Shown here: piece after piece, positions 16,114 to 29,774 of the stretch
Position numbering within the stretch: the first letter of the stretch is position 1
Layout: every line of letters starts with the position of its first letter
IMG/VR virus record: IMGVR_UViG_3300009285_005866
Coordinates: 1-32,684 of that record
Direction: 5' to 3' (one strand)
DNA: 32,684 nucleotides
Source of the DNA: a virus
Made by a program: the position numbers and the translations under genes
The notes under the pieces: model-generated
Seen by the model: the letters and a program-made list of their open reading frames with translations, nothing else
Told to the model about the DNA's origin: nothing
Databases searched by the model: none

Positions 16114-16251
16114 ATGACCCTCAAACTCCTCCTCGCTATCATCGCCCTCGCCCTCCTCGCTCATTTCGGCTTCGTGGTCGTGAGCAAAATTTCCTTTGAC
16201 GAGAATGGGTTTGATATTGAATTTGCGGATGACTGTCCCCTTAATCCTTAA
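16114..16251 (+). CDS. Small membrane protein, lysis-block candidate
   Basis: The 45 residues start MTLKLLLAIIALALLAHFGF, a single membrane segment, followed by an acidic short tail (FDENGFDIEFADDC). No Shine-Dalgarno sequence is seen. The following gene is another membrane peptide, then a two-segment membrane protein and a peptidase, so it may belong to a holin/antiholin or spanin-like set. The evidence is hydropathy and position only. Confidence 0.5.
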   Translation: MTLKLLLAIIALALLAHFGFVVVSKISFDENGFDIEFADDCPLNP

Positions 16252-16260
16252 CCTCCTCCC

Positions 16261-16371
16261 ATGCAGTATCTCTATGTACTCCTCGGCTTCGCGCTCGGCG
16301 TTCTGACGGAACACCTGTTCCACTGGTTTGACCAATCCTGCGGCTGGCTCGCGAAAAAAGTTTATAGATAA
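16261..16371 (+). CDS. Very small membrane peptide
   Basis: The 36 residues (MQYLYVLLGFALGVLTEHLF then a basic end) contain one short membrane segment. CCTCCTCCC precedes the ATG and is not a ribosome-binding site, so initiation is uncertain. It lies between two other small membrane genes, 9 nt after one and 12 nt before the other. It may be a regulator of the neighbouring holin-like proteins or not a gene. Confidence 0.4.
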   Translation: MQYLYVLLGFALGVLTEHLFHWFDQSCGWLAKKVYR

Positions 16372-16383
16372 GTATTCTTATTC

Positions 16384-16587
16384 ATGCTTTCAAACAAGGA
16401 ACGAATGCAATGGTACGCTCTCGGCGTGGCGACAATAGTGCTGCTGATCGTCCTCGGCATGACGATTCTCTCCGACCAGGGCTATCTCAATGACACATTT
16501 ATATTTTTTTGCTCGGTGCTGGGTATGGTTTTGGGAGCGGGGATCTACAAGTCAATAAAAGGAGATAAGGACAATGGCAAAACGTAA
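16384..16587 (+). CDS. Two-segment small membrane protein, holin candidate
   Basis: The 67 residues contain two hydrophobic helices (about 12-31 and 39-57) with a short polar link (SDQGYLND) and a basic C-terminus (YKSIKGDKDNGK), the layout of class II holins. Holins open the inner membrane to release endolysin. It overlaps the downstream peptidase gene by 14 nt, the classical holin-endolysin order. No family recognised. Confidence 0.55.
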   Translation: MLSNKERMQWYALGVATIVLLIVLGMTILSDQGYLNDTFIFFCSVLGMVLGAGIYKSIKGDKDNGKT

Positions 16588-17653
16588 ACTCAAAGGCAAT
16601 CTGAAATTCGGACTGGTTCCGCTGAAGAAGGACAAACACGACTTCCCTCTTGGCGCGGTATTTCCACAGATGGATATTAAGGATATCCTGCCGAAATTCG
16701 AGCTTCCCCGCATCTCTCCTCTGCACCAGAAAGAATCCGACTACTGCTCGGCCTACGGCACGGATCAGATGTCGCGTTTCCAGGAGGACGAGGAATTTGA
16801 ACCAAGTTGGGGTTTCGCGGTCTCAAAACTCCTCTCCGGCGACCCAGACGAGTGGGGTCAGAACCTTCGTGACGCTTTCAAGCGGCCGGTGAAGTACGGT
16901 TCGCTTCGTAAAGCTGACTCTCCAATGAGCCTCGAAACTCATGACGCGACATTCTTGCGGCATATCAAGAACTGGCCGAAGGATCTGTTCGATAAGGCCA
17001 AGCCGTTTAAGAAACAATCCTACTTCTTTATTGACGGCCGCTATGATCCGTTCGATAACATCTGCGTGGCGCTCTACCAGTTCCGTGATCAAGAACGCGC
17101 AGTCGGCTCGGGTGTGCTGTGGGACTGGCCGATGGATAATCCGAATATCCCGAGCAGAGTACCGACCAGCGGGTTTGGTCATTTTATCGTTTATACTGGA
17201 TATGACCGGGAGAAGGACTGCCTTGTCCTCTTGAACTCCTATGGTCCCGACGTGGGAGATAAAGGTTATTTCTATATTCCGCGAAGCGTAGTGAATGCCT
17301 TCGCCGGGAAGTATGGCGCGGGAATGTTCGTCGATCTTCCTGCTGCTACGGCTAAAATGATAATTAACGTTCACAAAAAGGAGTCAAATATGGCAGAAGT
17401 CCGAAGTGATTTTATGAACCTCAACCTTAAAGATGTTGCCAAAGGTGCTCTCGTTGCTGTCATCGTGGCGGTGCTTGGTTACAGCAAGGAACTCATTGAG
17501 GTAAATGGTCTGGCGATAACCGCGGATCAATTCAGGGAGATCCTCAGCATTGCCCTGACCGCCGGTGTTGGTTATCTGGTAAAGAATCTGTTTGAAGACA
17601 ACACTGGGAAGAACAAAATCATAAGTTCTGTGGGCGGTCTTTTTAAGAAGTAG
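16574..17653 (+). CDS. Papain-like (C1) cysteine peptidase fused to a holin-like domain
   Basis: Residues about 45-260 carry the C1 peptidase signature: Gln52 and catalytic Cys58 in SDYCSAYG, His203 in GFGHFIVYTGY and Asn221 in LLNSYGP with G-D-K-G-Y-F-Y-I-P after it. Papain-like peptidases occur in phages as lysins or processing enzymes. Residues 273-359 form a separate domain with two hydrophobic helices (GALVAVIVAVLGYSKE; ILSIALTAGVGYLVKNLF) resembling phage holins. The two halves are joined in frame. AAAGGAGA precedes the ATG at 16574. An internal AAAAAGGAG plus ATG at 17390 suggests the second domain is also made alone. No signal peptide is present at the N-terminus. Confidence 0.75.
   Translation: MAKRKLKGNLKFGLVPLKKDKHDFPLGAVFPQMDIKDILPKFELPRISPLHQKESDYCSAYGTDQMSRFQEDEEFEPSWGFAVSKLLSGDPDEWGQNLRDAFKRPVKYGSLRKADSPMSLETHDATFLRHIKNWPKDLFDKAKPFKKQSYFFIDGRYDPFDNICVALYQFRDQERAVGSGVLWDWPMDNPNIPSRVPTSGFGHFIVYTGYDREKDCLVLLNSYGPDVGDKGYFYIPRSVVNAFAGKYGAGMFVDLPAATAKMIINVHKKESNMAEVRSDFMNLNLKDVAKGALVAVIVAVLGYSKELIEVNGLAITADQFREILSIALTAGVGYLVKNLFEDNTGKNKIISSVGGLFKK
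17390..17653 (+). CDS. Internal in-frame gene: holin-like protein made from the peptidase ORF
   Basis: The ATG at 17390 is codon 273 of the peptidase ORF. It is preceded by AAAAAGGAGTCAAAT, a near-ideal ribosome-binding site at good spacing, stronger than most in this window. The 87-residue product has a polar N-terminus (MAEVRSDFMNLNLKD) and two hydrophobic helices, a complete holin-like protein. Either the stop of an upstream gene was lost, fusing two genes while both starts remain, or both forms are used. No frame break separates the two parts. Confidence 0.6.
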   Translation: MAEVRSDFMNLNLKDVAKGALVAVIVAVLGYSKELIEVNGLAITADQFREILSIALTAGVGYLVKNLFEDNTGKNKIISSVGGLFKK

Positions 17654-28598: not shown

Positions 28599-29774
28599 AT
28601 GAAAGTCCTCATCCTTGTCAATGGTCCCCTCGATACCAGCCCGTTTAACGAATCCCGGGACTTTCTCCATACCAACGGCCTGGACTGCGAATTTGAGTTC
28701 GTCACCATTCCCGCTGACATTTACCCACTCGTGGACTATGGCGGGGACGCGATGTGCGTGGACTATAACCGAATTGAGCAACCCGCTGCGGGATACGACA
28801 ATAAGTTTAATTTCCTGTTTTTTGATCCGAAGCCTTATGGGACCAAGATTCTCTCCTCCGCCAAGGTCGGCGCTGCGGGGGCGCGTCAATACGGCCAGAT
28901 CGTTTCTCCGACAGTTTACTCGGAGCCGGTACATGAACTCTGCCATCTCTTCTATAATTTTTTGGGTTTACCCGATAAGGTGCATGAAATAATTAAGGAA
29001 GAGAGATCGGATGCAGATAAGGCGTTCGGCGGTAAAAAGAAAGCGTTTGGTCGAATAGTGCGCGAATTGGCACCATTACTGGCACAAATCGTCAGCGAAC
29101 TCGGTCCTCTCTTACCACAGGAGACCATGAAAATGAGTCCACGATTCTTACTCCGTAGGAGAATCCCTATTTATAAAGCCGGATTTAATTCGCTTCGGAC
29201 TTCCCCGATTACTGGAGCGAGGTTTGTACACGAAGCGCAGGACTACCGCGCGTCATACGAGCCGGTCTATATGCCGGAGGACGGCACAGTAACGAATAAG
29301 TGGTCAGCGCTTGGCGGGTACGGACAACTCATAGAAACCAAAGAATATACCTTCACGATCTGGCATCTCTCCAAACGTCTGAAGACCGGCAACGTTCTCA
29401 AGGGAGACCAGATCGCGGCAACCGGCAACAGTGGGATGCTCACGAGTGGACCACACATGCACCTTGAAGCTGTTTATAGGATAACCAATAATAAAATCGA
29501 CCCGGAGGGTATCCGCTGGGACGAGGAAAGGGCAAACGATATGTTGATAAAAAAACAAGGTTCACCGGAATTTTCCTATCTCTCTTCAAAAAAGGTAAGA
29601 CATCCGATGAGCGAGAGGGCCTGGGTCGAATATTTTGATTCGGCGGCGCCAGACGTGGAAGCCACGGTGGAGAGCTACAATAATTTTCTAACCGGCAAAG
29701 CCATATTCTTTACCGCAAATTTCGGAGCGACCGAAGTCCCAGAGAATGTCTGGGAAGCGGAACCGGCTGAATAG
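28599..29774 (+). CDS. Dual-domain metallopeptidase: HEXXH zincin plus M23 (LytM) lysin
   Basis: Residues 1-135 form a domain with the zincin motif HELCH (112-116), where two His and a Glu would hold and use zinc. A helical linker follows. Residues about 200-300 are an M23 endopeptidase: His211 and Asp215 in FVHEAQDY, His256 in FTIWHLSK, TGNSG and the closing GPHMHLE (His286, His288). M23 enzymes cut peptidoglycan cross-bridges, so this is a probable endolysin or virion lysin. The function of the N-terminal domain is unknown; it may be a second peptidase. No signal peptide is present. It follows a small membrane gene, as a holin-lysin pair would. GTGAGCG is a weak ribosome-binding region. Confidence 0.8.
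   Translation: MKVLILVNGPLDTSPFNESRDFLHTNGLDCEFEFVTIPADIYPLVDYGGDAMCVDYNRIEQPAAGYDNKFNFLFFDPKPYGTKILSSAKVGAAGARQYGQIVSPTVYSEPVHELCHLFYNFLGLPDKVHEIIKEERSDADKAFGGKKKAFGRIVRELAPLLAQIVSELGPLLPQETMKMSPRFLLRRRIPIYKAGFNSLRTSPITGARFVHEAQDYRASYEPVYMPEDGTVTNKWSALGGYGQLIETKEYTFTIWHLSKRLKTGNVLKGDQIAATGNSGMLTSGPHMHLEAVYRITNNKIDPEGIRWDEERANDMLIKKQGSPEFSYLSSKKVRHPMSERAWVEYFDSAAPDVEATVESYNNFLTGKAIFFTANFGATEVPENVWEAEPAE

What the first reader, a model, noticed from the sequence alone, without database searches (positions are those of the whole stretch)
16574..17653. Peptidase-holin fusion with a strong internal in-frame start
A C1-type cysteine peptidase (Cys58, His203, Asn221) is joined in frame to a two-helix holin-like domain, yet AAAAAGGAG and ATG at 17390 would let ribosomes make the holin-like part alone. 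One ORF could therefore give a membrane-tethered peptidase and a free holin, coordinating the two lysis steps. I do not know this arrangement for a papain-like phage enzyme.
Basis: partly seen in the sequence, partly recalled or inferred. Interest (0 to 1): 0.65.

Follow-up and report, generated by a model that had tools for sequence, protein, structure and literature searches.

The report
Peptidase-holin gene pair fused in phage
In this uncultured phage, a papain-like protease gene and a neighbouring membrane-hole (holin-like) gene, which other phages keep as separate side-by-side genes, run together as one reading frame that still carries the second gene's own start signal, so one stretch of DNA probably makes both a fused and a free hole-forming protein.

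Summary
Confirmed: 16574-17653 is one 359-codon frame. Residues 1-262 are a papain-fold (C1) peptidase with Gln52/Cys58/His203/Asn221. The last 87 residues match an unnamed family of small two-helix proteins that are separate genes in every other phage seen, often near peptidoglycan hydrolases, so probably holins. ATG 17390 falls where those stand-alone genes start. Its ribosome site is one of six AAGGAG-N5-9-ATG sites in the window (1.5 expected); the other five begin long ORFs. I judge the internal start real.

The open junction is probably not an assembly error: a second IMG/VR assembly encodes the same fused protein and differs by one silent base inside it. Contig L056 has the same order, C1 then a holin of the same family, as separate genes in one frame with one TAG between. 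Cultured Gordonia phages have C1 'cysteine protease' then 'holin' (other holin families) in their lysis cassettes.

Best reading: a recurrent C1-holin lysis pair that lost its stop but kept the holin start, giving free holin plus a membrane-anchored peptidase-holin. What the long form does (antiholin, tethered enzyme, nothing) is untested. Holin-endolysin fusions and internal starts in lysis genes are known separately; this is a new variant.

The parts
16574..17653 (+). Fused ORF, 359 aa: C1 peptidase plus two-helix holin-like domain
   Evidence: same frame in a second assembly
16559..16576 (+). Ribosome site AAGGAG and ATG of the full-length product
16574..17359 (+). Papain-like (C1) peptidase domain, residues 1-262; Gln52, Cys58, His203, Asn221
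17345..17389 (+). Junction/linker (about 15 codons) holding the internal ribosome site; stops in both other frames, none in frame 0
17375..17392 (+). Internal ribosome site AAAAAGGAG and ATG 17390
17390..17653 (+). Holin-like domain, 87 aa, start aligned with stand-alone homologues; predicted helices 17426-17500 and 17522-17590, short helix 17618-17644
16384..16587 (+). 67-aa ORF with two hydrophobic stretches, overlapping the start of the fused ORF; possible second holin or antiholin
   Evidence: no confident family match

Best explanation
It is a phage lysis gene pair, a C1 (papain-like) peptidase followed by a two-helix holin, in which the stop codon between the genes has gone while the holin's own ribosome site and start codon remain. 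Initiation at 16574 gives a 359-aa peptidase with the holin domain as a membrane-embedded tail; initiation at 17390 gives the 87-aa holin alone. The short form should be the hole-former. The long form shares the membrane hairpin and should co-assemble with it while its large N-terminal domain stays on the cytoplasmic side, so it probably delays or tunes hole formation, as the longer dual-start products of lambda S and phage 21 do, and brings the peptidase to the lesion when it opens. Shown here: the frame, both start signals, both domain homologies, and the pair as separate genes elsewhere. Inferred: that both products are made, hole formation, the antiholin-like role of the long form, and the peptidase's target.
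For: Internal start: one of six AAGGAG-N5-9-ATG sites, the other five of which start long ORFs. ATG 17390 aligns with the starts of stand-alone homologues. The stand-alone family commonly lies near Pfam-confirmed M15, CHAP, amidase or phage lysozyme genes. L056, found by the C1 motif alone, has C1 then a holin of the same family (76 bits) as separate genes, with an M15-like gene just upstream of C1 (M15_4 E 0.018, PHROG endolysin E 2e-4); the two genes are in one frame with a single TAG and no other stop between. Gordonia phages Mareelih, Lilbeanie, GMA2 and Cafasso have a C1 cysteine protease or lysin and then a holin in the lysis cassette. Open junction in two assemblies with a silent SNP. 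Dual-start holins: PMC9671378; internal starts in endolysins: PMC12203907.
Against: No expression data. The two assemblies are one phage species, so long-term conservation of the fusion is untested. C1 peptidases in phage contigs are not in general enriched beside small membrane ORFs (24/78 vs 49/163; 22/81 vs 43/202), so the lysis role of this C1 rests on particular loci. No functional assay of the holin family is known to me, and no library model names it. The domain model is only moderately confident (pLDDT 67).
Confidence: 0.55

Rival explanations
1. Neutral stop loss: the two genes became one frame by a recent mutation and the junction has no function. The holin is made from 17390 as before, and the peptidase merely carries a tolerated tail.
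For: All other pairs and all other family members seen are separate genes; in L056 a single stop codon is all that separates the same pair in frame; only one species has the fusion.
Against: A membrane tail on a peptidase and a 272-aa extension on a holin would be expected to matter; the junction is open in two assemblies. Neither argument is strong.
Confidence: 0.3
2. The C-terminal domain is only a membrane anchor for the peptidase, or serves another membrane task, and is not a holin; the internal start is weak or unused.
For: The gene lies among structural genes and no classical peptidoglycan hydrolase gene is adjacent; small TM ORFs upstream (16384-16587) could be the real holin.
Against: Stand-alone homologues begin at the equivalent ATG and lie in lysis gene clusters; the ribosome site is of the kind used by other genes of this phage.
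Confidence: 0.1
3. Sequencing or assembly error removed a stop codon or shifted the frame.
For: Both other frames have several stops at the junction, as expected of a gene border.
Against: A second assembly with a distinguishing silent SNP at 17296 and a 26-base indel elsewhere has the same open junction.
Confidence: 0.04

Closest known systems
Cysteine protease - holin gene pair in lysis cassettes of Gordonia phages (Mareelih 109/110, Lilbeanie 40/41, GMA2 Orf38/39, Cafasso 30/31; C1 group of PHROG 16701)
   Same: C1 papain-like peptidase gene immediately followed by a holin-annotated gene
   Different: Separate genes with a stop between; those holins are not detectably homologous to the domain here, and the C1 here is only a distant relative (36.5 bits to the group profile)
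Natural holin-endolysin fusion of Clostridium sporogenes (TpeE-family holin; PMC9527704)
   Same: A holin and a lysis enzyme in one polypeptide
   Different: There the holin is N-terminal and the endolysin C-terminal; no internal start for the holin alone is described in the passages read; different enzyme and holin families
Endolysins with internal translational start sites (type II; PMC12203907)
   Same: Internal start inside a lysis gene giving full-length and C-terminal products
   Different: The C-terminal product there binds cell wall; here it is a membrane holin-like protein
Dual-start holin/antiholin genes (lambda S, phage 21 S; described in PMC9671378)
   Same: Two in-frame starts giving a short holin and a longer form with an N-terminal extension
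   Different: The extension there is a few residues (own knowledge); here it is a 272-aa enzyme
Xylellain (Xylella fastidiosa C1 protease, PDB 3ois)
   Same: Closest solved fold and sequence match of the peptidase domain
   Different: Cellular enzyme, 18% identity in the fold alignment; the holin tail has no counterpart known to me

Membership tests
Peptidase family C1 (papain-like) | Catalytic Gln, Cys, His, Asn in order and in conserved context | tested here: met
   Gln52, Cys58, His203, Asn221 invariant with 35 phage C1 peptidases
Peptidase family C1 (papain-like) | Papain fold | tested here: met
   Model matches xylellain E 3.9e-9 and many papains and cathepsins, although mean pLDDT is 61.7
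Peptidase family C1 (papain-like) | Score above the Pfam PF00112 gathering cut-off | tested here: inconclusive
   16.4 bits against 20.7; phage C1 profiles score 36.5 and 40.1 bits
Holin (functional class) | Small membrane protein with one or more transmembrane helices | tested here: met
   87 aa, two long predicted helices, homologous to stand-alone two-helix phage proteins; helices predicted only
Holin (functional class) | Encoded in a lysis gene cluster | tested here: met
   Homologues near M15, CHAP, amidase and lysozyme genes and next to C1 in L056; in the window itself the neighbour is only the fused C1 peptidase
Holin (functional class) | Makes membrane lesions that release or activate the endolysin | not testable with these tools
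   Needs expression; see next steps
Internal-start (iTSS) endolysin, type II | In-frame internal ribosome site and start between enzyme and C-terminal domain | tested here: met
   AAAAAGGAG-N6-ATG 17390 between the domains
Internal-start (iTSS) endolysin, type II | C-terminal product is a cell-wall-binding domain | tested here: not met
   It is a two-helix membrane domain; so it may work like an iTSS gene but is not a type II iTSS endolysin
Internal-start (iTSS) endolysin, type II | Both products observed | not testable with these tools
   No expression data
Endolysin (peptidoglycan hydrolase) | Cleaves peptidoglycan | not testable with these tools
   C1 peptidases as a class cleave peptides and proteins (general knowledge); the GMA2 relative is annotated 'putative lysin', no test of it seen

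The most novel reading that the evidence does not exclude
One phage gene encodes both a holin and its own enzyme-bearing antiholin: the full-length peptidase-holin joins holin complexes from the cytoplasmic side, delays hole formation and is delivered at the lesion, perhaps freed by self-cleavage of the linker.
Probability: 0.25. Interest if true: 0.6.

Novelty: new variant of a known kind. Interest (0 to 1): 0.42.

Why it matters
If both products are made, loss of one stop codon has turned a two-gene lysis pair into a dual-product gene in which hole-former and enzyme are covalently linked and their ratio is set by two ribosome sites. That gives a simple test of whether tethering the enzyme changes lysis timing. 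Separately, the search outlined a family of two-helix putative holins in environmental phages that Pfam and PHROGs did not name in the searches made here, and contig L056 shows how such a fusion could arise by a single base change.

Tried and rejected
Close relatives of the fused protein: none in cultured phages or genome contigs; only the same species in IMG/VR. General enrichment of small membrane ORFs next to phage C1 genes: null twice, so I do not claim that phage C1 peptidases are lysis genes as a class. A fused C1-holin elsewhere: none with a two-helix tail among about 240 motif-fetched C1 loci (the ORF in L395 has one hydrophobic stretch at its end, not examined further). Stand-alone holin in cultured phages by tblastn: none. 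The genome-contig scan with the holin pattern gave no family member by profile. Alignment A2 had one wrongly placed row (L105) and was replaced by A4. Assembly artefact largely rejected on the silent SNP. Duplex energy alone does not single out 17390, because G-rich runs score lower at some internal GTG, TTG and ATG codons. The host was not identified.

Full report
What was checked. The window is a 32,684-base virus record from IMG/VR with portal-, major-capsid- and terminase-like genes. The ORF at 16574-17653 translates without interruption to 359 residues. Its first 262 residues are a papain-like C1 peptidase. The Pfam match is below the curated cut-off (16.4 against 20.7 bits) and the best solved relative by sequence is xylellain, E 8.5e-4. 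Two further tests settle it: the predicted structure finds xylellain first, at E 3.9e-9, followed by papains and cathepsins, and in an alignment with 35 other phage C1 peptidases Gln52, Cys58, His203 and Asn221 are invariant. The relatives fetched by motif usually end about 36 residues after the catalytic Asn, which in this protein is about residue 257, just before the junction.

The C-terminal domain. No library named it, and tblastn against cultured phages found nothing credible. A degenerate DNA pattern built on its KDxxKG and YLxKN motifs retrieved about 20 small ORFs from IMG/VR with the same layout: stand-alone genes, mostly 70-110 residues, with two hydrophobic helices. A profile of 19 of them scores the domain at 65.5 bits, against at most 24.5 bits for shuffles that keep the two motifs and at most 48.6 bits for shuffles that also keep the hydrophobic pattern; with the motif residues masked it still scores 19.2 bits. 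Because the homologues were selected by those motifs, the shuffles that keep them are the fair comparison. A second scan with the other Lys codon added more stand-alone members. In the alignment ATG 17390 falls where the stand-alone genes begin. Ten neighbouring ORFs from ten of these loci were tested against Pfam: six are M15 peptidases, one CHAP, one phage lysozyme, one amidase and one DUF5675. The family is therefore probably a holin family, though I know of no assay of any member.

The internal start. AAGGAG followed after 5-9 bases by ATG occurs six times in the window, against 1.5 expected from shuffles, with none of 100 shuffles reaching six. Five of the six open long ORFs (9902, the major capsid gene; 11179; 16574; 20829; 29949) and the sixth is 17390. 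Some internal GTG, TTG or ATG codons have a lower duplex energy through G-rich runs, so the claim rests on the exact motif and on the homologues' start, not on energy alone. The RNA around 17390 is no more folded than shuffles.

Is the open junction real? Both other frames carry stops exactly at the junction (TAA 17353, TGA 17358, TAA 17361, TAA 17365), which is what a former gene border would look like. A second IMG/VR contig (3300025154_002246) matches 7,545 bases with one difference, at 17296, the third base of codon 241 (AAT/AAC, silent), and has a 26-base indel elsewhere. Two templates with the same open junction make an assembly error unlikely. Both belong to one species, so this does not show long-term conservation.

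The same pair in other phages. Contig L056 (IMGVR_UViG_3300031952_000362) was fetched by the C1 motif alone, yet it carries a member of the same holin family (76 bits) directly downstream of the C1 gene, with an M15-like gene just upstream of C1. The C1 gene ends in TAG, and the holin ATG follows 48 bases later in the same frame, with its own AAAGGAGG site and no other in-frame stop between. Its C1 belongs to PHROG 16701 (9.4e-44), which is also the weak best PHROG match of the window's peptidase (E 0.016). Cultured actinophages with that C1 family show the same order in annotated lysis cassettes: cysteine protease or putative lysin, then holin, in Gordonia phages Mareelih, Lilbeanie, GMA2 and Cafasso; in Arthrobacter phage Mufasa8 the holin comes before the peptidase. 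These holins are not detectably related to the domain here. In all of them the genes are separate.

Limits. Over all C1 loci fetched, small membrane ORFs are not more common beside C1 than beside other genes (24/78 against 49/163; 22/81 against 43/202). C1 peptidases in viral contigs are thus a mixed lot, and the lysis assignment depends on the specific cases above. In the window no classical peptidoglycan hydrolase gene is adjacent; an M23 endopeptidase ORF lies about 11 kb downstream. The enzyme's target is unknown.

Mechanism (inference). The most economical account is a two-gene lysis pair that lost its stop. The 87-aa form is the hole-former. I see no signal peptide in the 359-aa form, so its peptidase should stay on the cytoplasmic side, attached to the hairpin. 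Longer dual-start products of holin genes act as antiholins (PMC9671378), so the long form would be expected to join and delay holin complexes and to sit at the lesion when it opens. Self-cleavage in the linker is possible for a C1 enzyme but there is no evidence for it. A neutral stop loss is nearly as good an account and cannot be excluded with one species.

Comparison with the known. A natural holin-endolysin fusion is published for Clostridium sporogenes, holin first (PMC9527704). Internal starts in endolysin genes are frequent in phages of Gram-positive bacteria and in type II yield the cell-wall-binding part (PMC12203907). A possible holin-capsid fusion has been proposed for a Gordonia phage (PMC9671378). 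The combination here, enzyme first, holin second, with a retained start for the holin alone, was not found in the papers searched or in the loci examined. I rate it a new variant of a known kind.

Noticed in passing
L056:318-1325 (minus strand): C1 peptidase and two-helix holin as adjacent genes in the same frame, separated by one TAG and 48 bases without another in-frame stop: a natural 'before' state of the fusion, or a candidate for stop read-through.
   Followed up: partly
L090:7242-8297 (minus strand): A phage ORF that joins a C1-like peptidase domain to an M23-like endopeptidase domain in one 352-aa protein.
   Followed up: no
window 28599-29774: M23 endopeptidase domain (Pfam E 2.7e-9) preceded in the same ORF by an HELCH zincin-like motif, which suggests two metallopeptidase domains in one protein.
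   Followed up: no
window 16115-16587: Very small hydrophobic ORFs, including one of 45 aa and one of 67 aa (16384-16587), crowd just upstream of the peptidase start; the 67-aa one overlaps it and could be a second holin or antiholin.
   Followed up: partly
L130, L135, L137, L140, L143, L150, L166, L197, L211, L218 and others: A widespread family of stand-alone two-helix small proteins (motifs LNxKDxxKG and YLxKN) near lysis enzymes, often followed by a small lipoprotein-like ORF, without a Pfam family match and with at best a weak PHROG match.
   Followed up: partly
L125:3875-6136 (PV686781.1): Alicyclobacillus phage MMB025 ORF annotated 'endolysin' weakly matches the C1 peptidase domain (tblastn E 0.6).
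   Followed up: no
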